Below are positions 39,769-56,128 of a stretch of 64,000 nucleotides of DNA, piece after piece. Source of the DNA: Pedosphaera sp. (lineage in GTDB: Bacteria > Verrucomicrobiota > Verrucomicrobiia > Limisphaerales > SXQI01); the NCBI GenBank assembly GCA_025359965.1, contig JANYDC010000046.1:1-64000 (forward strand). The letters are read 5' to 3'. How positions within the stretch are numbered: position 1 is the stretch's first letter; each line of letters opens with the position of its first letter. The notes beneath the pieces were generated by a model, which was not told where the DNA came from, did no database searches, and was given only the letters and a program-made list of their open reading frames with translations. The position numbers were made by a program, and so were the translations under genes.

Positions 39769-40982
39769 CACTCGATTTCGAAAAACATTGGGAGAAAACC
39801 TTTCGCTATGCGAAAGCCAACTCCCCCTATTATCGTGAACTATTCCGGTCATCAAGTGACATGCCTAGGTTGGAAGATGTGCCGATGGTCGACAAAAAGA
39901 TTTTGTCAGAGCGCAACTTGGAGTTCCTGTCTGCGCCCAGGGAACGTATTGCTGAAATTGTCACGACGAGCGGCACAACCGGCAAGCCTTTGCTTTGGAT
40001 GCTCACCGATGGCGACTTGAAACGGCTTGCCCTAAACGAAAAACTTTCCTTCGAATGCGTAGGCTTGGCAGCGCACGACACCGTTCTGCTGGCCGTGGCA
40101 ATGGACCGTTGCTTCCTTGCCGGACTGGCCTACTGGCAGGGACTGCGCGAACTAGGTTGTGCGTCTGTCCGAGTCGGCCCGCCATCCGCCACGCTCATTT
40201 TGGAAATGATCGACCGCATCCAACCCACAGCAATTATAGCTGTGCCCTCGTTTTTACGGGTCATCGCCGAAAAAGCGGCCGAGGCTAAATACGATTTGAA
40301 GAACAGCCCGATCAGGAAAACCGTTTGCATCGGTGAGCCCGTGAGGGACGCATCATTCAATCTCAACACTTCGGGGCGCGCCATTGAAGCGGCTTGGGGA
40401 GCACGGGCTTATTCCACCTATGGAGTTACAGAACTGGCAAACTCGTTATGCGAATGTGACGCGGGTCAGGGTGGACATCTGCATGATGCAATGTTGCACA
40501 TCGAAATTGTTGATGACGATGGCAAGCACCTTCCCGACGGCGTGGTTGGCGAGGTTGTGGCGACGACTTTTGGCGTTGAGGCCATGCCCGTGATCCGTTA
40601 CCGCACTGGCGATTGCGCGGCTCTCTTTCGCAGTCCGTGCGCCTGCGGCCGCACGACGCCCCGACTGGGCCCAATCGTCGGACGAAAGAATCAAAAACTA
40701 AAATTCAAGGGTGCCTCGTTGTTCCCGTCTTCTTTGCAAACGGTGTTGGATGAATTCAATGGCGTGGAAAGTTATGTCATTGTGGTACGCATGGAGGCTG
40801 AACTTTCCGATTCAATCGAAGTGTTGGTTCAAGGCCAGGTTGCGGTGGAGATGCTGCGTGAGGCGATTCAGGCGAGGACGAAAATTGCTCCTAAGGTTCG
40901 CCATGCGTCGCGCGAGGAAATCGAAGCACTGCAAATGCCACCGCAGGCGCGTAAACGGAATACATTTGTTGATCTCCGATGA
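39765..40982 (+). CDS. PaaK-like phenylacetate-CoA ligase family enzyme
   Basis: A 405-residue adenylating enzyme from ATG 39765 (ATGA overlap with the oxidoreductase stop). Motifs are VTTSGTTGKP near 63-72, YGVTELA, YRTGDCA, and the Cys-rich PCACGRT typical of PaaK-type ligases. The C-terminal Lys lies in ARKRNTF. PaaK relatives activate aryl acids, so this could prepare an aromatic acid starter. It is the second acyl-activating enzyme in the same operon, which suggests two different acids are activated. Confidence 0.82.
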   Translation: MTLDFEKHWEKTFRYAKANSPYYRELFRSSSDMPRLEDVPMVDKKILSERNLEFLSAPRERIAEIVTTSGTTGKPLLWMLTDGDLKRLALNEKLSFECVGLAAHDTVLLAVAMDRCFLAGLAYWQGLRELGCASVRVGPPSATLILEMIDRIQPTAIIAVPSFLRVIAEKAAEAKYDLKNSPIRKTVCIGEPVRDASFNLNTSGRAIEAAWGARAYSTYGVTELANSLCECDAGQGGHLHDAMLHIEIVDDDGKHLPDGVVGEVVATTFGVEAMPVIRYRTGDCAALFRSPCACGRTTPRLGPIVGRKNQKLKFKGASLFPSSLQTVLDEFNGVESYVIVVRMEAELSDSIEVLVQGQVAVEMLREAIQARTKIAPKVRHASREEIEALQMPPQARKRNTFVDLR

Positions 40983-42115
40983 AAACTTGCGTCATTATTC
41001 CCTGCTTTAATCACGGCGGAACAGTGGCGAAGGTCGCTCGCGAAGCATTGGCATATTGTCCGGTCATCATCGTGGACGACGGGTCAACGGTGCCCCTGCC
41101 CGGGATGCCTGGATGCACTTTCGTTCGGTTGGAGCATAACTCAGGGAAAGGTGCCGCGCTGAGTGCTGGCTTTCGACGCGCGGGGGAACTTGGTTTCACT
41201 CATGCCATCACGATGGACTCGGATGGGCAGCACTTCGCCGAGGACCTGCCTAAGTTTCTGGCAAAGATGGCAACTCAGCCGGATGCGCTCGTGGTGGGCG
41301 TGCGGGATTTTTACTCCGCCGGATGCCCCACTCATCGACGCCGTTCCAACGCTGTATCATCATTCTGGTTCCGCGTGGAAACCGGCGTGCAACTCGGCGA
41401 CACTCAATGCGGATTTCGCTGTTACCCGATTGCGCTAACGCAACGCATCAAAGCGACATCAGGCCGCTATGCTTTTGAGATGGAAATCATGGTGCGCTCG
41501 TCATGGACAGGCACTCCAATTGTTTCCGTACCGGTGAAATGCACTTACGAACCTGAGCAAATCAGGCAATCGCATTTTCGCCCTGTTCGCGATCTGGCTC
41601 ATATCACGCTCATGAACATTCGCCTGGTGCTGCAATCGTGGGTTGTGCCGCTGGCGCTGCGTGTGGCTTGGTCCGAAGGTCGCAACCCCTCGTTGGGCGC
41701 TGCCGCCAGCGAGTTCTTTTCCGAGCATGCGCATGATCCATGGTCGATGTCGCTGGCGGTGGGGCTCGGATTGTTTTTTGGAATCGTGCCTATTTACGGG
41801 CTTCAATTAGTGATCGCGCTGGTTGTGGCGCATCGTCTGGGCTTGAACAAAGCCATCACGGCGGTGGCTAGCAACATTTCCATTCCGCCAATGATTCCTA
41901 TCATCATTTTCGGGTCATTGATGTTGGGGCACTGGCTTTTTACAGGAGAGGTAATCGCATTATCACTCAAGGAAATAACTCGGGCACACGCTGCCAAGTA
42001 TTTCTGGGAATGGTTGGCGGGCAGCATGGCCCTTGCTGTGATTGTGAGCATAACCGGAATCATCGTCTTCTACGCCGTTGCGAAATTGACGCATCGAAGG
42101 TGGACCAAAGCATGA
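40979..42115 (+). CDS. GT2 glycosyltransferase fused to DUF2062 membrane domain
   Basis: A 378-residue protein. The N-terminal GT-A domain has VDDGS (32-36) and the DSDGQH motif (80-85) expected for metal and nucleotide-sugar binding. Residues about 235-375 are a DUF2062 domain with three to four membrane segments (GLFFGIVPIYGLQL, IPPMIPIIIFG). Such enzymes transfer sugars to polyprenyl phosphate or membrane lipids; GT2/DUF2062 genes are common in aryl-polyene-type clusters. It is coupled by ATGA overlaps on both sides. Confidence 0.85.
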   Translation: MKTCVIIPCFNHGGTVAKVAREALAYCPVIIVDDGSTVPLPGMPGCTFVRLEHNSGKGAALSAGFRRAGELGFTHAITMDSDGQHFAEDLPKFLAKMATQPDALVVGVRDFYSAGCPTHRRRSNAVSSFWFRVETGVQLGDTQCGFRCYPIALTQRIKATSGRYAFEMEIMVRSSWTGTPIVSVPVKCTYEPEQIRQSHFRPVRDLAHITLMNIRLVLQSWVVPLALRVAWSEGRNPSLGAAASEFFSEHAHDPWSMSLAVGLGLFFGIVPIYGLQLVIALVVAHRLGLNKAITAVASNISIPPMIPIIIFGSLMLGHWLFTGEVIALSLKEITRAHAAKYFWEWLAGSMALAVIVSITGIIVFYAVAKLTHRRWTKA

Positions 42116-45100
42116 ATTTGGGCCTCTACACCCGTCTCTACCTGTGGTTGGTGGCGCACCGCCGCTGGGTGCTCGGCGTGACGGTGTTGCTGACGGCGGT
42201 CAGCGTGGCGGTTTCCCTGCGGATGGATTTGGATGAGGACATACTCACCACACTTCCTCAGAACGACAAATTGGTGGATGAATATCGGTACGCTCTTCGA
42301 AAGTTTCGCCAAATTGACCGGGTTTACATTGACGTTGGCATCGCCTCAGGTGAAACAGAATCACTCGGAGCTGCAGCAGACATGGTTTTCGGAGTGCTAT
42401 CCACCAACACTGCCTACGGACGGATTCTTTATCATGTCGAGACGGGCGGGGCGCAAAAGGTAATAAACTACCTGACCGGCGCACTGCCAAATTTGTTCAC
42501 TGAGGAGGATGGACCTACTCTGGCATCGAAGCTTGAACCAGCAACTGTGCGCGCACACCTAACCGATATGCGCCGCAAGCTGGCGGGGCCGGAAGGCATG
42601 GTGTTGAAAGATGTCGTTGCGGCTGATCCAGTGGGCATGACCTCCCTGGTAGTGGCGAAAGTCATGCCGTTGCAAACTGGCTTTGGCGACGCCCAGATAG
42701 TGGAAAGCCGTATCACGAGTGGGGATGGGCGCCATATTTTGATGATGGCCGAGCCAAAACTCCCATCGTCCAATTCAGGGGCCAGCCAGGTGCTTGTGCA
42801 AGACCTCATCCGTTTGGCGCGCAGTGTTGAGTCTCAGTTTCCCGGCGTGCATGTTGCCATTACGGGCGGTCACCGTATGGCGGTGGATAACGCGACCATC
42901 ATCAAGAGTGACGCGACCCGCTGCATTTCAATCGGCATGGCTGGGATGCTGGCACTTTATCTGGTGTCCTACCGGCGGCGATGGCTGGCCGGCATAACAT
43001 TTCTGCCTTCGCTGTTCAGCACGCTGGTGGCAGGCGCCGTCCTTGCAGTGACCCAGAGGCATTTGTCAGCCATCTCCCTGGGATTTGCCACCATCGCACT
43101 CGGTGTCACGGTGGATTACGCAATTTATATCATTTATCACCTCGAAGACGCGTCAGCCCGAGACCGGCGAACAGTCGGAACGAATCTGAGTCAGTTGGTG
43201 TTTCCCATCATAGTGGGTGCGTTGACCACGATCGCCGCATTTCTGGTAATGATGACCTCCCCCATGCGAGGCTACCAACAACTGGGGCTTTTTGGAGTGG
43301 TCGGCGTGGTACTTTCCGTGGCATTCGCTTTGATAATCCTGCCATTGCTCGTGCCAATGGTAAAAACGAAAGCCCAGCCGCCTTTGTGGCTGACTCAGTG
43401 GCTTGAAAATTTCTTTAAATGGCAATCGCGACGACGCTTCTGGCTTCTGGCTTTGATAGGCATTATAAGCCTGATTACTGGTTTCGGTGTTCGGCGGGTT
43501 AGGTTTGAAGGCGACATCGCCAAACTCAATGGCATCACGGAATCGACTCGGACCGATGATGCGTTAATTACCAAAACATGGGGCAGCGCATTCGGAATGA
43601 CTTTGATTGTGGCACGGGGGGCAACTACTGAGGAGGCATTGGCTCAAAATGATCGTGTCGCTGAGGTCTTAAGTCACGCCACAAATGTTTCCGCCTTTTA
43701 TTCGCTGTCATCCATTTGCCCTTCGAAGACAACTCAGGAGGAAAATTTCCGTCGCTGGCAGCGGTTTTGGACGCCTACGAGAAAAGAAAGACTGCGTGAG
43801 ACGTTGCAGCAAGTCGGCGAGGAACTGGGATTCCGCGAGGGCGCGTTTGAGACATTTTGGGAACGTCTGCGAGGTCAGCAGTCCCTTATCACAATAGCAA
43901 TGTTCCATGGAACACCGCTCGAGCAGGCATTGAGCGAAAGAGTCGCCGTCGGTGAGGGCGACAATGCAGTGAGCACCCTGGTTAAGTTGAAGCGTCGAGA
44001 AATCGCAGGAGACCTTCGGCAAATACTGCCTGAGACCATCGTGCTCGATCAAAAGGGATTCGCTGATCACATCGCGAAAATGGCGAAGAAAGGGCTGGGG
44101 CATTTCGCCTTGTGGACCAGCATTGCGGTGGCCGGGATTCTTTATCTGACACTTGCGTCAGCGGAGCTGGTTTTTGCAACGCTGCTGCCGCTGGCATTCG
44201 GACTACTTTGGACGTTTGGAGCGATGGGCTGGCTGGGTGTGCCCATTGATCTGATGAACAGCATCTTCGTCATCTTCATCATCGGTGTAGGAGAGGACTA
44301 CAGCGTTTTCTTCGTGGCAAGCAAGCTGGACGGATGGCGAGGAAAACCACCGTTGGCTGCGGTTACAACGGCATCAGTGCTTATATCGGCTCTGACGACT
44401 ATTTTTGGGTTTGGAGTGCTCATCATCGCTAAACACCCGGTGCTTTTCTCCATGGGTGTCACCGTATTGTTGGGAATGACATTCACATTCATTGCCACGC
44501 TGATCCTCACTCCGATGTGCATGGATCTACTGCTCTTCAAAAAATCACCACGTCGCGCCCCGCGATGGTGGCATTTGATTTCAAGCCTCTGGGTGCTGCT
44601 ACATCTGGGCGCCTGCCAGGTATTTCTTTATTACGTGTTGAGGCCGATGTTGTTCATCATTTCCCCGCGTTCGGCAGTCCACAGGCTGCGCCGCGCCACT
44701 CGTTGGTTGGCGCGTGGCGTGGTTAATGGCTTGCCCTTTGGAACACTAAAATTTCAGAATATCAGTTCAGCCACGTTTTCAGACCCAGCCATCGTCATTA
44801 GCAACCACCAATCAGCGGTGGATGTCATGCTGGTGGTTAGCCTGCCTGGGGATATAAGGCAAACGGCTAAGAAACGGGTCTTCGACGCCCCCATGCTCGG
44901 CCTGGGCTGCAAAATCCTTGGACATGTCATGGTCGAACCCGACGATCCGCAGACAACACTGCGCCGGTGTCGCGATGTGCTGGCAAGCGGTGCTTCGGTG
45001 CATTTTTATCCGGAGGGCACACGCTCCCGTGATGGTTTTGTGAGGCGCTTCCATCGGGGGGCATTTGAGCTGGCTATTGAACTGAGGCAGGACATTCTGC

Positions 45101-45942
45101 CTGTGGTGCTGTGCGACACCAACACAGCCATGCCTCGCGATGCCTATTGGTTCGAGCCGTTCACAACCACAGTCAGGGCTTTGCCGCGTGTCACGCCACA
45201 AAATTTTGATTACTCGCAGGGTGTCGCGGCCTTGATGAAACATTGCGAAACCATCGTGCGCTGCGGACTGCAGGGGCAGCTTGATGCAATCAATACACCG
45301 CAAGTCGTCCGACGCAAGACCTGCCGCCTCTACCGCTACCAATCCAAATATGTCGAACAGTTCGTCTACTGGAAAATGAAGTTGGACCCGGTCTTCAAAG
45401 TGTTGGATCAAGTGGCGCCACGACATGCCCATGTTGTTGATCTGGGTTGCGGATATGGCATAACGACTCACTGGCTGTCGGCATTTACCGAAACGCGCAC
45501 GTTTTGGGGCTTGGATTATGACGAGGACAAAATACGCGTCGCCCAGTGTACTGCCGAGGAGAATCCCCGTGTCCACTTCACGCATGGGGATATTTTCACC
45601 GCTGATTACCCCCCCTGCGATACAGTTTTACTCATCGATGTGCTGCACTACTGGACACCGGAAAAACAACAATTGATTCTGTGCAAAGCCCGCGAGGCTT
45701 TGCGTCCCGGCGGGCGGCTGGTGCTCAGGGACGGCGCACGTGCTTCCAATAAAGCCCATCGCCGTGTGCATCGCTGGGAAGAGTTCGCCACTCGCACAGG
45801 CATGAATCGAACAAAGGAGGGCCTGCACTTTCAGACTCGAGCAGAATTGGAGTCCATGCTGGGGCGGGCAGGATTTGCGGGATGGGAAATCAAGAACGAT
45901 GCCGGCAACAATTCTAACACGATGTTGGTGGCGTCTGTTTAG
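42112..45942 (+). CDS. MMPL exporter - PlsC acyltransferase - methyltransferase fusion
   Basis: A 1276-residue protein from ATG 42112 (ATGA with the GT2 stop). Residues 1-805 are a full RND/MMPL transporter: a first membrane helix near 17-36, helix bundles near 265-420 and 660-800, a helix near 438-458, and two outside loops. Residues about 880-1040 form a PlsC domain (SNHQSAVD, YPEGTRSRDG). Residues about 1065-1270 form a class I SAM methyltransferase (VVDLGCGYG near 1105, DTVLLIDVLHYW). So export, acyl transfer and methylation are on one chain. In known aryl-polyene sets these are separate proteins. Its 3' end overlaps the converging PlsC gene by 29 bases. Confidence 0.85.
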   Translation: MNLGLYTRLYLWLVAHRRWVLGVTVLLTAVSVAVSLRMDLDEDILTTLPQNDKLVDEYRYALRKFRQIDRVYIDVGIASGETESLGAAADMVFGVLSTNTAYGRILYHVETGGAQKVINYLTGALPNLFTEEDGPTLASKLEPATVRAHLTDMRRKLAGPEGMVLKDVVAADPVGMTSLVVAKVMPLQTGFGDAQIVESRITSGDGRHILMMAEPKLPSSNSGASQVLVQDLIRLARSVESQFPGVHVAITGGHRMAVDNATIIKSDATRCISIGMAGMLALYLVSYRRRWLAGITFLPSLFSTLVAGAVLAVTQRHLSAISLGFATIALGVTVDYAIYIIYHLEDASARDRRTVGTNLSQLVFPIIVGALTTIAAFLVMMTSPMRGYQQLGLFGVVGVVLSVAFALIILPLLVPMVKTKAQPPLWLTQWLENFFKWQSRRRFWLLALIGIISLITGFGVRRVRFEGDIAKLNGITESTRTDDALITKTWGSAFGMTLIVARGATTEEALAQNDRVAEVLSHATNVSAFYSLSSICPSKTTQEENFRRWQRFWTPTRKERLRETLQQVGEELGFREGAFETFWERLRGQQSLITIAMFHGTPLEQALSERVAVGEGDNAVSTLVKLKRREIAGDLRQILPETIVLDQKGFADHIAKMAKKGLGHFALWTSIAVAGILYLTLASAELVFATLLPLAFGLLWTFGAMGWLGVPIDLMNSIFVIFIIGVGEDYSVFFVASKLDGWRGKPPLAAVTTASVLISALTTIFGFGVLIIAKHPVLFSMGVTVLLGMTFTFIATLILTPMCMDLLLFKKSPRRAPRWWHLISSLWVLLHLGACQVFLYYVLRPMLFIISPRSAVHRLRRATRWLARGVVNGLPFGTLKFQNISSATFSDPAIVISNHQSAVDVMLVVSLPGDIRQTAKKRVFDAPMLGLGCKILGHVMVEPDDPQTTLRRCRDVLASGASVHFYPEGTRSRDGFVRRFHRGAFELAIELRQDILPVVLCDTNTAMPRDAYWFEPFTTTVRALPRVTPQNFDYSQGVAALMKHCETIVRCGLQGQLDAINTPQVVRRKTCRLYRYQSKYVEQFVYWKMKLDPVFKVLDQVAPRHAHVVDLGCGYGITTHWLSAFTETRTFWGLDYDEDKIRVAQCTAEENPRVHFTHGDIFTADYPPCDTVLLIDVLHYWTPEKQQLILCKAREALRPGGRLVLRDGARASNKAHRRVHRWEEFATRTGMNRTKEGLHFQTRAELESMLGRAGFAGWEIKNDAGNNSNTMLVASV

Positions 45943-46615
45943 CCGCAATGATTCGGTGACGCACTAATTCTGTGAATTCCTCACGCGGCAAAGGGAGATA
46001 TTCATTAGCCGGGATGGGTTCGCCAAAATGAACCTCAACTTTCCGCCAACCGCGGATGGGGTGGAACCTACCCGTCTTGGTGGACACCAACTGCATATTC
46101 TCGATGAAAACAGGGACGATCGGAAGGTGTGAGGCTTTGGCAATGTGATAAATTCCAGGCTGACAGACAGCCACGTTTACGCCGTCTCCGCGCGTGCCTT
46201 CGGGGAAAACAATTAGCTGGAAATCCTTTCCCGATCGACCGAATTCCTCCAGTTCGGCAATACGATTGGGGTTGAGCTTGCCTCGCTCAAGAAGGAAACC
46301 AGTTCGTTTGCTTAAAAACTGCCTAATCCATGAGGCTTGCCAGACTCCTTTATCTCCAAGCACAAGAATAGGGTAACACCGGGACCTCCAACACAGGGTG
46401 GATATGAGCAGGGTGTCGAGCAGGCTGACGTGATTCACCACGAACAAGTGGTTTTGTCCCCTTCGCAGGTGATGCATCCCATGCGTCCGGCGCAAAAACG
46501 GCAGCGCCATCAAGAATTGCATCAAGAATCCCAGAATAAATTGGATAAGCACCAGATCTCGCGAAACCCTTGGTGAATTTGGCGGCACCTGACTTGATCC
46601 CTGGCCTAAGTCCAT
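45914..46615 (-). CDS. PlsC-type 1-acylglycerol-3-phosphate acyltransferase
   Basis: A 233-residue acyltransferase with an N-terminal membrane segment (20-42), the catalytic His62-Asp67 box NHVSLLD and the FPEGTR box near 136. It lies at the end of the minus-strand operon, 4 bases after the C45 gene, and its 3' end overlaps the MMPL fusion gene by 29 bases. It may place the acyl chain on a membrane lipid. It is a second PlsC domain besides the one in the fusion protein. Confidence 0.85.
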   Translation of the reverse strand: MDLGQGSSQVPPNSPRVSRDLVLIQFILGFLMQFLMALPFLRRTHGMHHLRRGQNHLFVVNHVSLLDTLLISTLCWRSRCYPILVLGDKGVWQASWIRQFLSKRTGFLLERGKLNPNRIAELEEFGRSGKDFQLIVFPEGTRGDGVNVAVCQPGIYHIAKASHLPIVPVFIENMQLVSTKTGRFHPIRGWRKVEVHFGEPIPANEYLPLPREEFTELVRHRIIAAKQTPPTSC

Positions 46616-46619
46616 CGGC

Positions 46620-48290
46620 TTAATTCCCCCTCCTAATTCGCTTTATGGATTCCTCTAGCTCTCGTCTCTCTGACAGAAACGCAGGCTTTTGTGTGAGCGC
46701 AGCATCAAACGCCTTTGTCGCTTCCTCGATGCGTCCCAACATTTCCAAAGCCTTCCCCCTCAGCGATGCGTTCTGATAGAATTGTGGATTGGTGGCCTCA
46801 GCCTTGTCAGCGGCAACGAGGGCCGATGCAGCATCCTTAAGCTTCAAAGCCAACTTGGCCTCAACAAGGAGCTTTTGCGCCTCTTGAACGTGTGTATATT
46901 CACCTGATGTCACCAAGGCATCAGGCGGAACACTGAGTGCAGGCAATTCATGATCAAAAGCATTTACGTCGAAAGCGACGAACTTGCCCAACTGATGCGG
47001 CGGTGATGCAGCCCAAAAGATCCCGTCAGTCAAATTCATGACCGTCGCATGCGTGGCAATGAAAGCATTCAGGGTCGATCGGTGTCCATTGCCAGGAAAA
47101 TGATTACCCGGCAATTGGCGGTCCCGCAAAAATTCAACAGCCGCCCCCACGGTAATATGCCCCGGCGCTGAGGCCAGCAATTCCGCCATTCGCAACTCCC
47201 GTGAAACCGATGTCGCCTCTGCGATGTAATTCGTATTAAGGGCATCATTCTTGAGCCCGGGTGTTTGAAAATAATTACCACACACGATCGAATCACCACT
47301 TGTTTCACGTACCTGCGTCGTGTCGGGGGTTTTTTCCACGATAACAAATTTTCCGTCAGTCCGGCTTCCCATGAGCCAGAGTGTTGAAACAAACACTTTC
47401 GCATCCCGTAGAAGTCTAAGTGCCTCCTCAAGATTGTGGGACTTTTCCAGAATCTCCCTTGCGACCATTGCCGCCGGTGTCGCGATTTGGTTTGGCAGAC
47501 TGGATGGCGCCCCATTGATGGTGATGGAAATACCCGCCCGGTTCATACCTGAAACGACTCCGGCCATTCCCGCCCACGAAAGGGAAATGAATGGGATTCC
47601 ATCATCAGGCTCGCACATCATGACCACTCGATCGCGGCTAAAAACCTCAGCTGCCTCCCAATCAAAATTGCGTCCGGTGATCAAATGCCCCTTTTCCGTT
47701 GCGCCTCCCCAGGCACCAAAAGCGGTACAACCGGCGCGGGAAACCAGCGGATTGTCGATCATCATATACGAGACATCGTGCGCGGAGTGATAGTTCAGCA
47801 GCCGATTGTAAAACGATCCTTCTTCCGGATGGATATCAGGGCAACCAAGTGAGGTGCCATAAATCTCCTCCCGGTATTTCAGCGGCACGAAATCGCTCAG
47901 ATGTCGGTTTCTAAAAATAATGTAATGCTTCAATAGGTTTCTGATTCGTCGCTGTGGCACATAGCCTTTGATCATCTCCAGGAATTCGTTCTCAAGAACA
48001 TGCATCTTATCCTGCATTAGCACGCCTTGGGCATACCCGATCTCGAAAGGAGAACCCTTCAAATACACCACCAAAAGACCTTCGCGGCGGCTTGTCCAGC
48101 ATTGGCCAAGCCGCATTTTTCCATCCCGCAGTTCAGGTTTCTGGAGGAAAAGGGAGGTATCGAACGGGATTTTAGGCGGCTTGGCCTCCCAACTGCGAAG
48201 CACCATGCCTCCAAACAGCCAGACCACCAGCCCAGCCAGGGCTATGGCAACCAAAAATCGCTTGAAATATACTACTATTTTCTTCGCCAC
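46620..48290 (-). CDS. Membrane-anchored C45 family autoproteolytic acyltransferase/hydrolase with TPR tail
   Basis: A 556-residue protein. Residues 8-30 form a membrane anchor. From about 70 it is an Ntn-hydrolase of the C45 (acyl-CoA:6-aminopenicillanic acid acyltransferase) type. The likely self-cleavage site and catalytic Cys188 is in RAGCTAFGAWGG, and GRNFDW supplies the family's Asn/Asp. Residues about 440-556 are TPR-like helices. C45 enzymes make or break amide bonds. In this operon it may attach an acyl chain to an amine outside the cytoplasm. It overlaps the upstream gene by 16 bases. The role is inferred. Confidence 0.8.
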   Translation of the reverse strand: MAKKIVVYFKRFLVAIALAGLVVWLFGGMVLRSWEAKPPKIPFDTSLFLQKPELRDGKMRLGQCWTSRREGLLVVYLKGSPFEIGYAQGVLMQDKMHVLENEFLEMIKGYVPQRRIRNLLKHYIIFRNRHLSDFVPLKYREEIYGTSLGCPDIHPEEGSFYNRLLNYHSAHDVSYMMIDNPLVSRAGCTAFGAWGGATEKGHLITGRNFDWEAAEVFSRDRVVMMCEPDDGIPFISLSWAGMAGVVSGMNRAGISITINGAPSSLPNQIATPAAMVAREILEKSHNLEEALRLLRDAKVFVSTLWLMGSRTDGKFVIVEKTPDTTQVRETSGDSIVCGNYFQTPGLKNDALNTNYIAEATSVSRELRMAELLASAPGHITVGAAVEFLRDRQLPGNHFPGNGHRSTLNAFIATHATVMNLTDGIFWAASPPHQLGKFVAFDVNAFDHELPALSVPPDALVTSGEYTHVQEAQKLLVEAKLALKLKDAASALVAADKAEATNPQFYQNASLRGKALEMLGRIEEATKAFDAALTQKPAFLSERRELEESIKRIRRGN

Positions 48291-48649
48291 AATTTGAGTA
48301 TCGACTGTCCGGCACGTTGGCCACCAACTGAAAAATCAGCGCAGGCCCGGATGGTATCCTCTGTTTCAGCCCATTTCAATTCCAGCAGTATCCTTTCATC
48401 AGGTAAAATCGGGCGCTGAAATTTCGCCTTGCCGACTTCACCGACCACCATTGCGCACCCCATAGCCCACTCTGCCGCTGAGCGCGTCATTTCTATTTGA
48501 AAGACTCCGGGAAGCAAAGGGTGTGTTGGAAAATGGCCTGCGAAAACCGGATCGTCAGCCTCGAAATAAAATTCAAAAACTGCCGCGCCATCCGCAAGAT
48601 GATCGGGACCTCTAATTCTGGCCGCAGCGATTGAGTCCCTCATGTTCAT
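48275..48649 (-). CDS. FabA/FabZ-like 3-hydroxyacyl-ACP dehydratase
   Basis: A 124-residue hotdog-fold protein with the FabZ active-site string GHFPTHPLLPG (His39) and Glu53 in FQIEM. It should remove water from a 3-hydroxyacyl-ACP to give a trans double bond, as needed for polyene building. Alternative start at 48643. Its start overlaps the DUF3261 stop by ATGA. Confidence 0.85.
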   Translation of the reverse strand: MNMRDSIAAARIRGPDHLADGAAVFEFYFEADDPVFAGHFPTHPLLPGVFQIEMTRSAAEWAMGCAMVVGEVGKAKFQRPILPDERILLELKWAETEDTIRACADFSVGGQRAGQSILKLWRRK

Positions 48650-49146
48650 GGTCTTCCCTTGAGTGTTTCGTCAAACATCTCAGGGGGCTGGACGCCAGGC
48701 TTGGTATCCACAATCTGTAAATCCAACTTATAACGGCGATTCTTAATCACGAAATGAGAGGGACTCAATTGCGTTGCATGGCAATCCGCACCACTTGCAT
48801 CGCCGAACAAACACTGCAGGTCTGCCGTCACAAATCGACGGATCCATTCCGGCTTAAGCGCCCGGCTTGAACGCATGACAAACGTGGAACCATCAGATTT
48901 GACCAACACGTCGGCCAGGACGCTTCCCAAATTCTCGGTCACCACGAGGCGCTTGCCACCAGTGGCGCTGGTAGCCAGATATCCCGTGAGCATAAACTCC
49001 CGACCCATGGCTGTGAGCACCGCCCGTTGAGTCACCAATGCCTCGACAAAAGGAAGGACTTTCCTGGCGGGAATAGTGCTGGTCGGCGCTGTGGCGCAAC
49101 CGGCCAAAAGCAAAGTCAACAATGGCAGAAGATATTTAAGGAGCAT
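48646..49146 (-). CDS. DUF3261-type lipoprotein
   Basis: A 166-residue protein with a lipobox (LLAGC, Cys17) and a beta-rich body that resembles the DUF3261 lipoproteins found in aryl-polyene clusters. There it probably sits at the outer membrane and takes over the product from the LolA-like carrier, like LolB for lipoproteins. It overlaps both neighbours (11 bases with LolA, 4 with the dehydratase). Confidence 0.7.
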   Translation of the reverse strand: MLLKYLLPLLTLLLAGCATAPTSTIPARKVLPFVEALVTQRAVLTAMGREFMLTGYLATSATGGKRLVVTENLGSVLADVLVKSDGSTFVMRSSRALKPEWIRRFVTADLQCLFGDASGADCHATQLSPSHFVIKNRRYKLDLQIVDTKPGVQPPEMFDETLKGRP

Positions 49147-49828
49147 TGCTTAAAGTCGCCTTAATGGCAGCAACATCCAAAGGTTTGGCCTGATCAAACG
49201 TGCCGACGGGAAACTTCACATTCCGCTGTTCCCTGCGGAAAATAATCCGTGTCAGATCACCGTTGGGTTCATTCATCACTACCTCGGTCGTGCCCGAAAA
49301 ATCCGGCTTCATCTTCACTTCGAGGCACGAGAGAACTGAACGCACGTTTTCATCTTTGGGGACCATCGTCAAAACCGCCAATGCACCCGTTGCGACTGAA
49401 ATGGTAAAATCGCTTGTGAGGGCATCGAGCTTGCCTTGATTCATTAAGGTCATCTGGTCCATGACGCGCTTCAACATTTGTGGGAAGCCGAGCTTTAATT
49501 TTTTCCAATCTCCATCAACACGCTCAAACTGTGCGACGGATTTATGATTGCCCAAAAGAATGGATTGGTAGGGCTCGGTCGTCTCCCAACGGATTTGGTC
49601 AGGACGGTCAATCAGCATGACACCTTCGCTGCTCAGTGGCTGGGCGAACAATTTCAACTGCCGTTCCTGGGTGAATTCCAGATACACCGAACTTAGCGAG
49701 GACATCTTGCGCTGAAGTTCCTGCAAAATCGGAAGAGCATTGGACGAGGACTGCAACAGCGGTGACTCGGCGGCTGTGGACAAGATGATGGCAGCCATCA
49801 TCGCTCCGATAATAAACAGTGTTTTCAT
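49136..49828 (-). CDS. LolA-like outer-membrane carrier protein
   Basis: A 230-residue periplasmic protein with a signal peptide (1-20) and the LolA fold pattern: LQELQRKMSSLSSVYLEFTQERQ at the start in helix-strand order, then SEGVMLIDRPDQIRWE with the conserved RW. The family ferries lipids or lipoproteins across the periplasm, and aryl-polyene clusters carry a dedicated copy. Its start overlaps the deacetylase stop by ATGA (49825-49828). Confidence 0.85.
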   Translation of the reverse strand: MKTLFIIGAMMAAIILSTAAESPLLQSSSNALPILQELQRKMSSLSSVYLEFTQERQLKLFAQPLSSEGVMLIDRPDQIRWETTEPYQSILLGNHKSVAQFERVDGDWKKLKLGFPQMLKRVMDQMTLMNQGKLDALTSDFTISVATGALAVLTMVPKDENVRSVLSCLEVKMKPDFSGTTEVVMNEPNGDLTRIIFRREQRNVKFPVGTFDQAKPLDVAAIKATLSNAP

Positions 49829-50577
49829 TTCAGCAATTGATCCAAGCGTACCACCTCATACTCAAGCGTGCGCAACCTTTCCAAAAGCATTTTAACCGTG
49901 GTCACGAGACGTTCGTCAGGAATATTTCCATCGTGAAGCAAAATGATCGCACCGGGTTTCAGCCTGCGTGTGATGCGGTTCACAATTCGTTCCGAAGAGG
50001 TCAGTTGGGTGTCCAATCCACCGGCACCCCAACCGACCACGGTCAACCCCAGATCTCTGGCCACTCGGAATACCCGCGGGTTGGTCAATCCGATGGGCGG
50101 ACGAAAAAACCGGGGCAGAATGCCTGTGGCTTTCTGGATTGCTTGCTGCGCCCGTCGTAAATCATCGCGGAGACGGATGACGGAAAAAACATTGGTCAGA
50201 TTGCTGTGCTCGTACGAATGATTTTCAAGCAAGTGTCCCTCGCTCACGATCCAGGCCGCCAACTCTGGGTTCTCCGCGACTCGACGGCCGACTCCGAAAA
50301 AAGCAGCCTTTATACCCAGGTTGCGAAGAAGCTGGAGCAGTTTCGGTGTGGATCGTGCATCAGGCCCATCATCAAAAGTCAGAGCCACACAGCGCCGGGA
50401 GCTTTTCCCCTGACAAACCATTGGGCCAAAAAAGCGCATCTGAGGGATGGCTGAACCCAGTCCGATCAAAATGAGCAGAATCAAAATCACGACTCTGGCA
50501 ACACCCCAATGGCCAGAACCGAACGCCAGGATAGCCAGTGGAAGCGCGATCAGGGTTGCAAAATTAAATCGAGTCAT
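49825..50577 (-). CDS. Membrane-anchored polysaccharide deacetylase (NodB-type)
   Basis: A 250-residue protein from ATG 50577; the long in-frame extension upstream is antisense-like and overlaps the ketosynthase. Two hydrophobic segments lie in residues 5-45. The NodB domain has TFDDGPD near 66-72, HSYEHSN, FRPPIG and LLHDG, the metal and acid/base boxes of carbohydrate esterase family 4. It probably removes N-acetyl groups from an envelope sugar and would expose an amine. It overlaps the ketosynthase stop by 14 bases. Confidence 0.85.
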   Translation of the reverse strand: MTRFNFATLIALPLAILAFGSGHWGVARVVILILLILIGLGSAIPQMRFFGPMVCQGKSSRRCVALTFDDGPDARSTPKLLQLLRNLGIKAAFFGVGRRVAENPELAAWIVSEGHLLENHSYEHSNLTNVFSVIRLRDDLRRAQQAIQKATGILPRFFRPPIGLTNPRVFRVARDLGLTVVGWGAGGLDTQLTSSERIVNRITRRLKPGAIILLHDGNIPDERLVTTVKMLLERLRTLEYEVVRLDQLLK

Positions 50578-52765
50578 GGCTTTCCAGACAGCATACCGCC
50601 TTGGCGCCTCGCGGCGATAGCGTGTAAAGAAGCACGCCTCGATGCCCCTGCTGCACAAGGCCGACTGCCACGGAAAATCCGAATGCCGACGCGGCGTGGA
50701 ATTCTCCGCACGTTTGCTTATAGGTTTTATGCTCCAATGATCTCCCGGCGCGCGCTGACAAAGCATCCAGGATCGCCCTATAATGAACATCCAATGCAGA
50801 CCAGCCACCTGCACCGCTCAACACCATATCAACCCGGGTAAGATCAACCGAGGTTGCTATCCAGTCGGCCTCCCGTTCCGTATCAAATGGCCGATGATAC
50901 CGGCCCAACCGGACTGCCGTCACCCTTGCGAGCGATTCGGGCTTCCCCCCACGGATTAGACACGCAACCACGGCACCTTCGCCGGGTTTAGTTTGCTCGG
51001 TCCAGTGCCCCCATCGCTTTCCAATGGCCAACGGATATTTATTCAGCTCATCCACCGCGCCAACAAGTGCTATGTCCGTCTCGTCGGCGGCAATTTGATG
51101 GAAGCCCTGCCAAAGGGCGCATTCAAAGGAAATTTCCCCTGCCGTTGGTGCTGAATTCATGGCCCGTGCGCCAAGATCGATTGCAATTTGTGCGGCGGCG
51201 GCGTTGTGGACCGAGCCGGAAAACCGTGATGGCATCGGCGCAGGATTGTTCTCTGAAAAATAATTCTCAATAAACTTGGCACCCTCGTCGAGACAGCCAA
51301 AACCAGTGCCCATCAACACAGCAACCCTCTGTGCGGGATCGGGATTGCAGCTTTGCCGCGCAGCAATTAGTGCCATCTGGACCAGGCGACTGGACCGGCG
51401 TCGTTGGTTGGGGGATAACAAGGCCGCACCGGCCAGCGCACCGCAACTGTGTGCAGCCACCGCCCCTGAAGGGAGCGGAGATTCAATCTCGTAGAGTGTG
51501 TCAACCCCAGGATCAACCACGCCAACTCCCGCAATAGATACTTGAACCGTTTGTGGGGCACGGGTAGTCACTGGGGCATCCGGTTGGGAAAAAATAAGCA
51601 CGGCATTGTTGCCGCCGAACCCGAATGAGTTGCTCATCACATGAGTCAATGACAGACCTCGCAACACGGTGACGGGCTCGATCCCGACGGCGGGGTCAAA
51701 AATGGAAAACCCTAGATTGGGTGGGATTTCCTGGTGCAGCAATGCTTCAACGCAAACCACCGCTTCAATCGCGCCGCTGGCCGCAAGGGCGTGGCCAAAA
51801 AATCGTTTGGTGCTGGTTACTGGTGGCACAAGCTCGCCAAAAACTGTCTTTAACGCTTTCGACTCCGCGAGATCATTGTCACGAGTACCGGTGCCATGGG
51901 CATTTACGTAGTGAATGTCGGAGGGTTTCAAACCGGCCCGTCGCAAGGCAGCGCCCATGGCTGCGACTGCTCCGGCGCCTTCCGGATGTGGGGCTGTGGC
52001 ATGGTGAGCATCGCAGCTCGCGCCCCAACCGCTCAATCGAGCCAGAATTATCGCCCCCCTCCTGCGCGCAAACTCCTCGGACTCAAGCACGAGAACTCCG
52101 GCACCCTCGCCCATGGTTGTTCCAGCCCGTGTCGCATCAAAGGGCCGACAGCCCATTTCATCGACAAGTAGCAGCGAGTGAAACCCCGCCCAGGTCATTT
52201 GCGACAGGGAATCAGCTCCACCTGCAAGCACCACATCTGCTTCGCCCGACTGGATCATTTCCGCGGCGGTGGCAATGGCCAGCGCGCCGGACGAACACGC
52301 GGTGGAAACAGCCATGCTCGGACCCAGTAAACCGTATTCCTCCGCGATCAAATCGACCACGGAAACGCATTCGTGGAAACGGGTGGGAAGCGGGCGCATT
52401 TTGCCGCGCCTGACTAAATTGCTGAGGAAATGTTCACTATTAAACGAACCACCCACCGAACACCCCAGCACCACGCCGGCGCGTTCCGAGCAATCAACAA
52501 AATCAATTCCGGCGGCTTCAACCGCCTCACGCGCAGCCAGCCAGCCGAGCTGATCACTGCGGGAACCTCGAGCGGGCGCGCCAAGAGCTGTCAAATCGGT
52601 GTGCGCCTCGCCTGCAAGAACCCGACTGTAACGAGGTGACGGAAAAAGCGTGAGCGGTTTGAGTCCGCTTCTTCCCGCTCTTATGGCCTCCCAAGTCGCT
52701 TCCACGCCAACGCCCGTCGCCGCGATGATGCCAAGACCCGTTACAACTGGGGAGCACGCAACCAC
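50564..52765 (-). CDS. Ketosynthase fused to a non-catalytic ketosynthase-like domain
   Basis: A 733-residue protein starting with GTG 52765 (one-base overlap with the ACP stop). Residues 1-395 are a complete beta-ketoacyl-ACP synthase: Cys157 (TACSSG), His290 (NAHGTGT) and His325 (FFGHALAASG). Residues about 405-733 repeat the fold, but the three catalytic positions read APTAG, SGAGG and CGEFH, so Cys and both His are lost. This resembles a KS with a chain-length-factor-like half on the same chain. It probably extends the polyene on the ACP next to it. Confidence 0.85.
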   Translation of the reverse strand: MVACSPVVTGLGIIAATGVGVEATWEAIRAGRSGLKPLTLFPSPRYSRVLAGEAHTDLTALGAPARGSRSDQLGWLAAREAVEAAGIDFVDCSERAGVVLGCSVGGSFNSEHFLSNLVRRGKMRPLPTRFHECVSVVDLIAEEYGLLGPSMAVSTACSSGALAIATAAEMIQSGEADVVLAGGADSLSQMTWAGFHSLLLVDEMGCRPFDATRAGTTMGEGAGVLVLESEEFARRRGAIILARLSGWGASCDAHHATAPHPEGAGAVAAMGAALRRAGLKPSDIHYVNAHGTGTRDNDLAESKALKTVFGELVPPVTSTKRFFGHALAASGAIEAVVCVEALLHQEIPPNLGFSIFDPAVGIEPVTVLRGLSLTHVMSNSFGFGGNNAVLIFSQPDAPVTTRAPQTVQVSIAGVGVVDPGVDTLYEIESPLPSGAVAAHSCGALAGAALLSPNQRRRSSRLVQMALIAARQSCNPDPAQRVAVLMGTGFGCLDEGAKFIENYFSENNPAPMPSRFSGSVHNAAAAQIAIDLGARAMNSAPTAGEISFECALWQGFHQIAADETDIALVGAVDELNKYPLAIGKRWGHWTEQTKPGEGAVVACLIRGGKPESLARVTAVRLGRYHRPFDTEREADWIATSVDLTRVDMVLSGAGGWSALDVHYRAILDALSARAGRSLEHKTYKQTCGEFHAASAFGFSVAVGLVQQGHRGVLLYTLSPRGAKAVCCLESHDSI

Positions 52766-53022
52766 TAGGCAGCCCGTTTGGCTTGAATGAAGCTGGCGAG
52801 AGCCCGGATGGACTGGAATGCCGGACGACCAGCTTCCAAGTCTTTAATGACAATTCCGTAACTATTTTCCAGCATCGCAACCAGTTCCAGAGCATCAATT
52901 GAATCCAAATCCAGCCCCGCACCAAACAATGGGGCATCGTCATCAATTTGTTCAGGTTGCACCCCCTCCAACTGCAACGTTTTAATGATGCGGACTTTCA
53001 ACTCATTGGCTAATGATTCCAT
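52765..53022 (-). CDS. Acyl carrier protein
   Basis: An 85-residue ACP with the phosphopantetheine site Ser41 in LDLDSIDALEL. It is set between the chain-length-factor-like gene (6 bases upstream) and the ketosynthase fusion gene (overlap TAGTG). It is probably the ACP that carries the chain during extension. Confidence 0.92.
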   Translation of the reverse strand: MESLANELKVRIIKTLQLEGVQPEQIDDDAPLFGAGLDLDSIDALELVAMLENSYGIVIKDLEAGRPAFQSIRALASFIQAKRAA

Positions 53023-53028
53023 AGAAAC

Positions 53029-53613
53029 TTAACTCGCAAGGTCTTTCGGGCACAATACTCGGCACATTTTCTCGATGTCACGATCATTCTCCCCCAACTC
53101 ACGAACTCCATTGCCGCCGAGCCGTAGGAGGATCGCTCCCGCAAGGGCGGCAGCCGGAGAGTTAATCAGCCCGGCAATGGCCGGTGTCACAACATTGTAA
53201 AAAACACAAAGGCAGGCCTGCGCTTCACCGCGCCTCAGAAGATCGCACGCTTCGGGTATTATCGAACCCTCCCCTGTCAGGCACAAATTCGGACCGGTCA
53301 ATCGGTGACGAATTGCAATCTCTCCAATAGCCGAACTGGGCAAAGTGTAAGCAAACAATGTGGGACTGGGTCCGCCTGCATTGTCGCGGCCCCGCCAAAA
53401 ATCAAAATCGGTGGCAAGGGATCCAGCGCGCGCTGCCAGGCAGATGCCGATTAACTCACGCGGCAGCAAATCAAAATTGACGCCCAGAGCCTCCACCGCA
53501 ACCAGCGCCAATTGACTCGCCAGATCGAGACGACCAAAGCGCGTGCCAAGACGCGCCATGCGCACATCCTCTTCTCCCACCATGCTGGCCGCTGCAATGA
53601 CTATTTTATCCAT
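53029..53613 (-). CDS. Small ketosynthase-like protein, probable chain-length factor
   Basis: A 194-residue protein from ATG 53613, within the last 8 bases of the ketosynthase gene. It looks like the N-terminal half of a ketosynthase (the PF13723 type called beta-ketoacyl synthase chain length factor in aryl-polyene clusters). The place of the active Cys reads LTGEGS, so it should not be catalytic. Known aryl-polyene synthases need such a partner (ApeC with ApeO) to set chain length. Confidence 0.75.
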   Translation of the reverse strand: MDKIVIAAASMVGEEDVRMARLGTRFGRLDLASQLALVAVEALGVNFDLLPRELIGICLAARAGSLATDFDFWRGRDNAGGPSPTLFAYTLPSSAIGEIAIRHRLTGPNLCLTGEGSIIPEACDLLRRGEAQACLCVFYNVVTPAIAGLINSPAAALAGAILLRLGGNGVRELGENDRDIEKMCRVLCPKDLAS

Positions 53614-54778
53614 GACCCAAGATGAGTGCACCATTGATGCCACCAAAACCGGTGTTTAACTTCAATACTACATTGAGACAATCCACCACATGGGGATCCC
53701 TCATGAGACCGGCCGGCGTTCCTTCCGCAGGTTCAATCAGCCGGGGTGTCCCAGGCAGGAATCGCCCCTCCATCGCAAGGATGCACACAATAGTTTCCAC
53801 CACTCCCGCCGCGCCCAGTGTGTGGCCCAGCATGCCTTTTGCGGCACTAACAGGCGGGCATTTCTCACCAAACACCGTGCGCAATGCCATTGATTCCATT
53901 GCGTCGTTATATGGCGTGCCTGTGCCGTGCGCGTTCACGTAACCAATGTCGGGTGATTGCAATCCCGATGCGTTCAAAGCCCTTCGAATGGCGAGGGCCA
54001 GCCCCGATCCATCCCGTGACGGTCCGGTAAGATGATTTGCGTCGTTGCTCCCGCCCCAGCCCAGCATGGAGATGGCGGATGAAGGGGCCAGGTCGCCACG
54101 CACAAGCACAATGGCCGCGCCCGCCTCGCCGGGGCTTAACCCACATCGATTGCGATCAAATGGACGACAGCCATTCGGATCAATGGCCTTCAGCGCGGTG
54201 AACCCTGCCACCACAAATGACGACAGATGATCCACCCCCACCACCAACACGGCATCAGCATCGCCGCGCAGAATCAATTTCGCCCCCTGCTGCAGGGCCA
54301 CAAGCCCAGACACGCAAGCAACCGACACGCATTGAACAGGGCCACTCGCTCCTTGACCGGCGGCAAGATCTACCGCCAGAGCATATCCCTGCAAATGACG
54401 GCGGGCATCATCGGAACAGGGTTCATTTTCGGCAAGCTGCTCCAACGCGGCGATGTTTGCTTTCGTCGTCGAAAGCACCAGTCCAATGCGAGCAGCGGGA
54501 ATCGAGGACAAAACGTTCCGTGCCTCATCGCAAGCCTCACCCAACGCTGCTACCGCCAGATGAAAAGCAGGATCGCCCGAAGGAAAATCATTCGGTGGAA
54601 CCGCTCCGACAATACTTGACTGAAATCGGGGCGAATCGAAACGGGCGTTCGGTTTTAGTCCGCTGGAATTGGTTTTCAGCGCTGCCCTCAATGCATCCAC
54701 GCCACGGCCGACAGCGGTGATGGCACCGCATCCGATGATGGCTACTCCCGGGCGGGAAAACTTGGACACCTCAGACAT
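53606..54778 (-). CDS. Beta-ketoacyl-ACP synthase (KAS II-like)
   Basis: A 390-residue ketosynthase with the full triad: Cys155 (SVACVSG), His284 (NAHGTGT) and His319 (MLGHTLGAAG). Length and motifs are typical of FabF-like elongating enzymes. Its 3' end overlaps the chain-length-factor-like gene by 8 bases, which suggests the two are made together and act as a pair. Its start overlaps the upstream dehydratase-like gene by 8 bases. Confidence 0.9.
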   Translation of the reverse strand: MSEVSKFSRPGVAIIGCGAITAVGRGVDALRAALKTNSSGLKPNARFDSPRFQSSIVGAVPPNDFPSGDPAFHLAVAALGEACDEARNVLSSIPAARIGLVLSTTKANIAALEQLAENEPCSDDARRHLQGYALAVDLAAGQGASGPVQCVSVACVSGLVALQQGAKLILRGDADAVLVVGVDHLSSFVVAGFTALKAIDPNGCRPFDRNRCGLSPGEAGAAIVLVRGDLAPSSAISMLGWGGSNDANHLTGPSRDGSGLALAIRRALNASGLQSPDIGYVNAHGTGTPYNDAMESMALRTVFGEKCPPVSAAKGMLGHTLGAAGVVETIVCILAMEGRFLPGTPRLIEPAEGTPAGLMRDPHVVDCLNVVLKLNTGFGGINGALILGHG

Positions 54779-55181
54779 AAAGCATTAACTCCCCGCGCGC
54801 GATCTGTTCGCCCCTGCAAACAATTCTGCCTGAAATCTTGATCATCGAACCCAGCCGCTTTAATTCGCGAACCTCAATCTGCAGAACCTCCTCCGCCGAC
54901 GGACGAGACCGGATCTGAAAATCATTCACGGCCACGAGCATGCCGACCGGCGCGGCGCCGGCTTGTCCGCTGTTTTTTGCGCGCAGCCCCTGGGCCGCAG
55001 CCACAGTCTGCGCAACGCATTCGATCAATGCACCTTCAATGACCTGCCCTTCTTCAACGGCAAAATGGTCCGAACTAAATCGGGCGGTCGCGGTGGCGGT
55101 CATATCCGTGCAGTCCGTCAACGCGTCAATGAAACGCATGGGGGTTCGATGCGGAATTAGCGACTCGATGGGTTCGGACAT
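54771..55181 (-). CDS. Hotdog-fold 3-hydroxyacyl-ACP dehydratase-like protein (ApeP type)
   Basis: A 136-residue protein from ATG 55181 (MSEPIESLIPHRTPM). The opening box LIPHRTPMRFID and the helix GALIECVAQTVAAAQG match the short dehydratase-like proteins of aryl-polyene clusters. His11 and Glu54 are the likely active-site residues. Starting at 55229 would add a 16-residue piece that only overlaps the upstream gene. It overlaps the LpxL-like gene by 25 bases. Confidence 0.75.
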   Translation of the reverse strand: MSEPIESLIPHRTPMRFIDALTDCTDMTATATARFSSDHFAVEEGQVIEGALIECVAQTVAAAQGLRAKNSGQAGAAPVGMLVAVNDFQIRSRPSAEEVLQIEVRELKRLGSMIKISGRIVCRGEQIARGELMLYV

Positions 55182-56128
55182 AGCTCGCTGGCGGGTTTGG
55201 GGATGGTCGGGGCTGCGGGTTCGTTCCAAAATGGGAAGAAATTATACCACTGGAGTGGGTCCCTCTTGAGCGTTGATTCCAAGTTTTGCGCGAAAGTGGC
55301 GGCGCAATTTTTCAAATAGTCATCCCGCAGATGATGAGCGGGCATTTTGGGAAACTGGGCTGGAAACCCAAAAAAACGATAATGCCCTCCCGGCTCACGC
55401 AGGTTAAAAACCGTGACCAGGGGCGCGTTGGCAATTGAGGCAAGCACATACGCGCCGATGGGAAAAGACGCGGTTCCGTTTAAAAACGGAGCTTCCTTTG
55501 AAGGACTTCCGTAAGCGCGGTCGCCCAGCATGGCCACAATCTCGCCGCGCCGCAAAGCCGCCAGAAGGGGGATGGCATCCGCCGGCGATCCCGTCAATGG
55601 CAACAGACGAAATTTTGCTCTTGAGGATTGGCTCAGGAGAGCTCGAATATCGGCCGATTCGTTATCAAAACCGGTGACATTGATGGGCACGTCAAGATGG
55701 GTCAGTAATTGCCCTGCTGCTTCCCAATTGCCAACGTGAGCCGTAACCAACAAGGCACCACGGCCAAGCCCCAACGCTTTGTGCACATGATGCTCCTCCT
55801 CAAAGGAAAACGAAAAATATTTCTGTTTGCCCGCGAGGATTGCTGTGCGGTCGATGATGGCTCTTCCAAAGGAAAGAAAGTGCCGAAACACCAGCCACCG
55901 CCGTTTCCACCATGGCACATTGCCAAAAACGCGGCGGTGGTAATCCATCGTGGCTGCCACATCCGGGGACATGAAGGAAAAATAGACCGCCACTGGAACG
56001 ATCAGGAGGTACGTCACTCGCAAACCAAGCACACGCAAAACCGTGATAAAAAACCAGATCCCCGAACGTCCACCCCGAAGTTTGCCAGTGCCGGACCAAT
56101 GAGGAGTCTTTGAAGGGTTTTCCGCCAT
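55157..56128 (-). CDS. LpxL/HtrB-like lysophospholipid acyltransferase
   Basis: A 323-residue inner-membrane acyltransferase, first gene of the minus-strand operon. One or two membrane segments lie at 22-52; the HxxxxE box is His131-Glu136 (HVGNWE), and GDRAYGS fits the second conserved block. LpxL-like enzymes add acyl chains to lipid A or similar lipids, and relatives occur in aryl-polyene clusters. A region of about 146 bases with no gene separates it from the divergent cytochrome gene, and both promoters should be there. Confidence 0.85.
   Translation of the reverse strand: MAENPSKTPHWSGTGKLRGGRSGIWFFITVLRVLGLRVTYLLIVPVAVYFSFMSPDVAATMDYHRRVFGNVPWWKRRWLVFRHFLSFGRAIIDRTAILAGKQKYFSFSFEEEHHVHKALGLGRGALLVTAHVGNWEAAGQLLTHLDVPINVTGFDNESADIRALLSQSSRAKFRLLPLTGSPADAIPLLAALRRGEIVAMLGDRAYGSPSKEAPFLNGTASFPIGAYVLASIANAPLVTVFNLREPGGHYRFFGFPAQFPKMPAHHLRDDYLKNCAATFAQNLESTLKRDPLQWYNFFPFWNEPAAPTIPKPASELCPNPSSR

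What the first reader, a model, noticed from the sequence alone, without database searches (positions are those of the whole stretch)
50564..53613. Ketosynthase fused to a dead ketosynthase, beside a second separate chain-length factor
The second half of the 733-residue protein keeps the fold but has lost Cys and both His (APTAG, SGAGG, CGEFH). The separate 194-residue gene at 53029 also lacks the Cys. So there are two catalytic ketosynthases and two non-catalytic partners, one of them covalently joined. This may mean two extension modules with different chain lengths or starters.
Basis: partly seen in the sequence, partly recalled or inferred. Interest (0 to 1): 0.7.

Follow-up and report, generated by a model that had tools for sequence, protein, structure and literature searches.

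The report
Fused ketosynthase and dead partner enzyme
A Verrucomicrobia bacterium makes one of the two chain-building enzymes of a flexirubin-like pigment pathway as a single long protein, an active half joined to an inactive partner half that other bacteria encode as a separate gene, which shows which partner belongs to which enzyme and makes their roles easy to test.

Summary
The 733-residue protein (50564-52765, minus strand) is an intact ketosynthase (KS; Cys157, His290, His325) joined by about 13 residues to a complete KS-fold half in which the Cys is Glu544 and both His are lost. The 194-residue gene (53029-53613) is a half-size partner without the Cys; its KS (53606-54778) is intact. 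All 17 related Verrucomicrobiota contigs examined keep the same open fusion. In ten Bacteroidota contigs the KS and its dead partner are separate adjacent genes, mostly in the same gene order, which is that of flexirubin genes flxL-M-N-O-P. The predicted structure of the fusion matches best, over the whole chain, the covalent KS-chain length factor (CLF) didomain of PfaC (6riw); the 194-residue protein matches ishigamide and ApeC CLFs. So this is a flexirubin-type aryl-polyene cluster with two ApeO-like KS:CLF pairs, one fused, and no ApeR-type KS. KS-CLF fusion is known from PUFA synthases, and several KS:CLF pairs per cluster are known; a fused pair in an aryl-polyene system, and the non-catalytic nature of FlxO, I did not find described. 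New variant of a known kind. Different chain lengths or starters remain untested.

The parts
51584..52765 (-). Catalytic KS half of the fusion (residues 1-394); Cys157 at 52295-52297, His290 at 51896-51898, His325 at 51791-51793
   Evidence: FlxN position; PRK09185 (ApeO) 331 bits, fabF 364 bits
51545..51583 (-). linker between the two halves, about 13 residues (395-407)
50567..51544 (-). Non-catalytic CLF half (residues 408-733), PF13723/ApeC-like but full length; Cys->Glu544 (51134-51136), His->Gly, invariant CGE 686-688 (50702-50710)
   Evidence: FlxO position
52765..53022 (-). acyl carrier protein, reaches the PRK09184 cut-off (70.1 of 70), the model that one E. coli APE-cluster ACP also matches; its stop overlaps the fusion's GTG start by one base
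53029..53613 (-). half-size CLF, 194 aa, one thiolase-like subdomain
53606..54778 (-). second catalytic KS (390 aa), ApeO-like (PRK09185 best family, 251 bits), Cys/His/His intact
54771..55187 (-). hotdog-fold dehydratase-like (weak FabZ, 33.9 bits)
55157..56128 (-). lipid A acyltransferase-like protein
49825..50577 (-). polysaccharide deacetylase (FlxP position), overlaps the end of the fusion gene
49136..49828 (-). LolA-like, nearest LolA2_flexi (80.9 bits, cut-off 125)
48646..49146 (-). 166-aa protein of unknown family, conserved in the related Verrucomicrobiota clusters
48275..48649 (-). ApeI-like dehydratase
46620..48290 (-). C45 autoproteolytic acyltransferase-like protein
45914..46615 (-). 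acyltransferase (PF01553)
42010..45942 (+). MMPL exporter + acyltransferase + methyltransferase in one protein
40979..42115 (+). glycosyltransferase family 2 + DUF2062
39696..40982 (+). FlxY-like acyl-CoA ligase (412 bits, cut-off 520)

Best explanation
The protein is a KS-CLF didomain. The N-half does decarboxylative Claisen condensation on ACP-bound aryl-polyene chains. The C-half packs against it as the pseudo-symmetric dimer partner, shaping the product tunnel and probably the ACP dock, without catalysing. It works beside a second KS:CLF pair (KS 53606 with the half-size CLF 53029) in a flexirubin-type aryl-polyene cluster, and arose by fusion of two adjacent genes equivalent to flxN and flxO. 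Shown: sequence, loss of catalytic residues, conserved in-frame fusion, split homologues in the same gene order, predicted PfaC-like arrangement. Inferred: that the halves dimerise, that the C-half is inactive, that the product is flexirubin-like, and what each pair does in the chain.
For: Fusion in 17 of 17 Verrucomicrobiota loci; these KSs, with two further fused homologues (L078, L079), form one clade, support 100/99. Ten Bacteroidota loci carry ACP-KS-CLF with KS and CLF split; eight have the half-size CLF upstream and seven the deacetylase downstream. In the C. pinensis flexirubin cluster FlxL, N and O are putative KSs and FlxP starts the set flxP-flxU that begins with a polysaccharide deacetylase (PMC3992019). 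AF2 of the fusion: pTM 0.89, pLDDT 79.7; best PDB match over the whole chain is 6riw, PfaC KS-CLF, TM 0.80 by query, the other listed hits cover one half. C-half is PF13723 in 16 of 17 members, aligns to E. coli ApeC at 94.6%, and keeps an Arg pair like the one PMC8358021 proposes for ACP binding in ApeC. In L068 the other KS is fused to its half-size CLF, so fusions join each KS to its own neighbour. FlxY-like ligase in the window; aromatic ammonia lyase and FlxJ-like methyltransferase (520 bits, cut-off 560) elsewhere in the genome.
Against: All structure is predicted; the fusion alignment held only 16 sequences and some loops are below pLDDT 50. Two chains of the fusion could also pair in trans. 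Flexirubin-family matches fall below NCBIfam cut-offs. No ketoreductase was seen in the part of the window scanned. No product is known.
Confidence: 0.8

Rival explanations
1. The C-half is a second catalytic site with changed chemistry (for example using the invariant CGE motif or Glu544), not a passive CLF.
For: CGE (686-688) is invariant in both phyla, and Glu544 invariant in the Verrucomicrobiota set.
Against: No conserved Cys/His/His set; the Glu544 position is A, N, S, G or H in Bacteroidota. Structural or docking roles explain the conservation as well.
Confidence: 0.1
2. The fusion acts as a homodimer through its KS halves (ApeR-like), with the C-half hanging free.
For: The KS half is also close to FabF (fabF 364 bits against PRK09185 331), which is homodimeric.
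Against: Predicted whole-chain arrangement matches PfaC KS-CLF; the ApeR model PRK09116 scores only 214 bits against 779 for E. coli ApeR; the C-half is kept at full length in every complete fused homologue.
Confidence: 0.06
3. The dead half is a decaying duplicate with no function.
For: It has lost all three catalytic residues.
Against: 62 percent mean column identity and many invariant C-half columns over 16 fused proteins; homologues kept as separate genes in another phylum.
Confidence: 0.02

Closest known systems
Flexirubin cluster of Chitinophaga pinensis, flxL-flxM-flxN-flxO-flxP (PMC3992019)
   Same: gene order and content as far as the paper's text gives them: KS-like L, N and O, deacetylase, acyltransferase, LolA, glycosyltransferase, exporter, FlxY ligase
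   Different: there N and O are separate genes, both listed as putative KSs; here they are one gene. The C. pinensis sequence itself was not compared; synteny was seen in other Bacteroidota contigs
ApeO-ApeC KS:CLF of aryl-polyene clusters (6QSP, 7F28; PMC8358021)
   Same: active KS with PF13723-type CLF; half-size CLF also present; Arg pair proposed for ACP binding
   Different: fused and full-length CLF here; two ApeO-like pairs and no ApeR-like KS in the cluster
PfaC KS-CLF didomain of PUFA synthase (6riw)
   Same: covalent KS-CLF, best whole-chain structural match
   Different: about 18 percent identity, no attached DH domains, free ACP, short linker
Clusters with several KS-CLF pairs (mbg with four, Ysf with three; PMC13311259)
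   Same: more than one KS:CLF pair per cluster
   Different: those pairs are separate proteins of other pathways

Membership tests
type II KS:CLF pair | KS with Cys/His/His intact | tested here: met
   Both KSs, window and homologues
type II KS:CLF pair | KS-fold partner lacking the nucleophile | tested here: met
   C-half and 194-aa protein
type II KS:CLF pair | physical heterodimer sharing one tunnel | not testable with these tools
   only a predicted arrangement
flexirubin-type aryl-polyene cluster | gene order half-CLF/ACP/KS/CLF/deacetylase with Flx-type accessory genes | tested here: met
flexirubin-type aryl-polyene cluster | NCBIfam Flx models above cut-off | tested here: not met
   FlxY 412/520, LolA2 81/125, FlxA 404/700, FlxJ 520/560: relatives, not equivalogs
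flexirubin-type aryl-polyene cluster | flexirubin product, dialkylresorcinol genes darA/darB | not tested
   no product data; dar genes not searched for
PfaC of PUFA synthases | KS-CLF covalently joined in one chain | tested here: met
PfaC of PUFA synthases | further DH domains and PUFA synthase gene context | tested here: not met
   protein ends after the CLF; neighbours are aryl-polyene genes
ApeR homodimeric KS | match to PRK09116 above cut-off 470 | tested here: not met
   214 and 128 bits for the two KSs; E. coli ApeR 779

The most novel reading that the evidence does not exclude
The full-length non-catalytic half of this flexirubin lineage is a distinct kind of CLF with an acquired, conserved Cys-Gly-Glu site that takes an active part (for example in ACP release or chain gating), and the two KS:CLF pairs divide the polyene between early and late elongation in place of ApeO-ApeC plus ApeR.
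Probability: 0.12. Interest if true: 0.65.

Novelty: new variant of a known kind. Interest (0 to 1): 0.45.

Why it matters
It predicts that FlxO, so far listed only as a putative ketosynthase, is a non-catalytic partner of FlxN. It assigns KS:CLF pairs by natural gene fusions, and gives a one-chain, fixed-ratio KS-CLF from an aryl-polyene system, useful for testing how a CLF sets polyene length.

Tried and rejected
Search of the 194-aa protein by sequence against PDB found nothing; only the fold search placed it. Its profile link to E. coli ApeC is weak (20.6 percent), so calling it an ApeC orthologue was dropped: by sequence the fused C-half is nearer to ApeC. Assigning one of the KSs as ApeR was rejected. 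The phylum-wide profile search mostly returned ordinary KSs and was used only for its top hits. A simple Shine-Dalgarno pattern found no sites in the window and says nothing on internal starts. The position of E. coli ApeO in the tree is unsure (long branch).

Full report
The finding. On the minus strand lie, in order, a dehydratase-like gene (54771-55187), a KS (53606-54778), a 194-residue KS-like gene (53029-53613), an ACP (52765-53022), a 733-residue protein (50564-52765) and a polysaccharide deacetylase (49825-50577). Genes overlap or abut: the 194-residue gene starts 8 bases inside the end of the KS gene, and the fusion's GTG shares a base with the ACP stop. This suggests one operon with coupled translation (inference).

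Catalytic residues. The N-half of the 733-residue protein has the KS set Cys157, His290, His325, and matches FabF-type KSs at E about 1e-78. The C-half is a KS relative: PF13723 at 41.5 bits, and 315 columns aligned to the N-half at 99.7 percent. The two His positions hold no conserved His: hhalign puts a His of the window (GEFH) against the second catalytic His, but homologues have Y, P, H, A or G there. The Lys of the K...GH motif is kept.

Related sequences. In the window's order, 35 of 320 genomes matched the C-half at E 0.001 or better; 20 of these are strong, 17 with a full fused frame and three cut by contig ends. In the named collection all 17 Verrucomicrobiota loci carry an uninterrupted fusion (the two sets overlap). 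That the window is from this phylum is inferred from these order-mates. Ten Bacteroidota loci (Chryseolinea, Subsaxibacter, Kriegella, Flavihumibacter and MAGs) have ACP-KS-CLF with the KS and CLF as separate genes; eight have the half-size CLF upstream and seven the deacetylase downstream. The KS tree puts the fused group in one clade (100/99), so one fusion event is enough for it; L083 and L087 show fusions in a second clade otherwise split, so fusion happened more than once. In one Bacteroidia contig (L068) the other KS is fused to its half-size CLF in a 588-residue frame. Natural fusions thus pair KS 53606 with CLF 53029, and the KS half with the CLF half, never crosswise in what was seen. 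L068 is a single MAG contig.

What the cluster is. Schoner and co-workers describe flexirubin genes flxA-flxY in C. pinensis, with FlxC, I, L, N and O as putative KSs and flxP-flxU as deacetylase, acyltransferase, LolA, glycosyltransferase and exporter (PMC3992019). The window has the same set, with FlxY-like (412 bits), LolA2-like and ApeI-like proteins. A second locus of the same genome (contig C37) holds an aromatic ammonia lyase, a halogenase-like flavin enzyme and a FlxJ-family methyltransferase at 520 of 560 bits. So a flexirubin-type aryl polyene is likely; the matches are below equivalog cut-offs, so the exact product is open. No ketoreductase was found among the proteins scanned between 25972 and 63984.

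Structure. AlphaFold2 gave pTM 0.89 for the fusion. Foldseek's best PDB match is 6riw, the PfaC KS-CLF didomain, aligned over 882 columns with TM 0.80 by query length; the following listed matches cover one half only, TM about 0.5. The KS-CLF of gammaproteobacterial PUFA synthases is described as proposed to form an intramolecular dimer (PMC13311796). The 194-residue model (pLDDT 83.8) matches the ishigamide CLF and both ApeC structures best. ApeC is known to be half-size with one thiolase domain (PMC8358021), so the short partner is ordinary.

Which KS is which. By NCBIfam, E. coli ApeO is PRK09185 and ApeR is PRK09116 (the Ape names of these E. coli genes rest on their gene order and my own knowledge). 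The window's KSs score 331 and 251 bits on the first, 214 and 128 on the second. Profile scores agree that both lean to ApeO rather than ApeR. The cluster therefore has two ApeO-like pairs, unlike the Acinetobacter type with ApeO-ApeC and homodimeric ApeR.

Novelty. KS-CLF fusion is known in PUFA synthases; several KS:CLF pairs in one cluster are known (PMC13311259). In the held open-access library I found no account of a fused KS-CLF in an aryl-polyene cluster, and FlxO appears in one relevant paper only. Most subscription papers could not be searched. I rate it a new variant of a known kind. Whether the two pairs make different lengths or use different starters is not decided by anything here.

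Noticed in passing
L068 4951-6717: In one Bacteroidia MAG contig the other KS is fused in frame to the half-size CLF (588 aa), the mirror case of the window's fusion.
   Followed up: partly
L083 67-2385, L087 1360-3405, L079 235-2358: Further KS-CLF fusions in other Verrucomicrobiota; L083 and L087 fall in a clade of otherwise split pairs, so fusion arose more than once.
   Followed up: partly
L096 (own genome contig C37) 7322-12852: Second flexirubin-type locus: CrtI-like oxidase, aromatic ammonia lyase, halogenase-like flavin enzyme, FlxJ-family methyltransferase. Possible halogenated product.
   Followed up: partly
window 50702-50710: Invariant Cys-Gly-Glu in the dead half, conserved across two phyla but absent from the other KS-CLF fusion looked at (L083); no explanation.
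   Followed up: partly
window 48646-49146: 166-aa protein without any Pfam or NCBIfam match, conserved in the related Verrucomicrobiota clusters next to the ApeI-like dehydratase.
   Followed up: no
window 42010-45942: MMPL exporter, acyltransferase and methyltransferase joined in one 1310-aa protein.
   Followed up: no
PDB 9s5h chains B and C: Structure with two different KS-like chains; chain C matches the dead half over nearly its full length (E 3e-5), unlike most FabF hits; not identified here.
   Followed up: no
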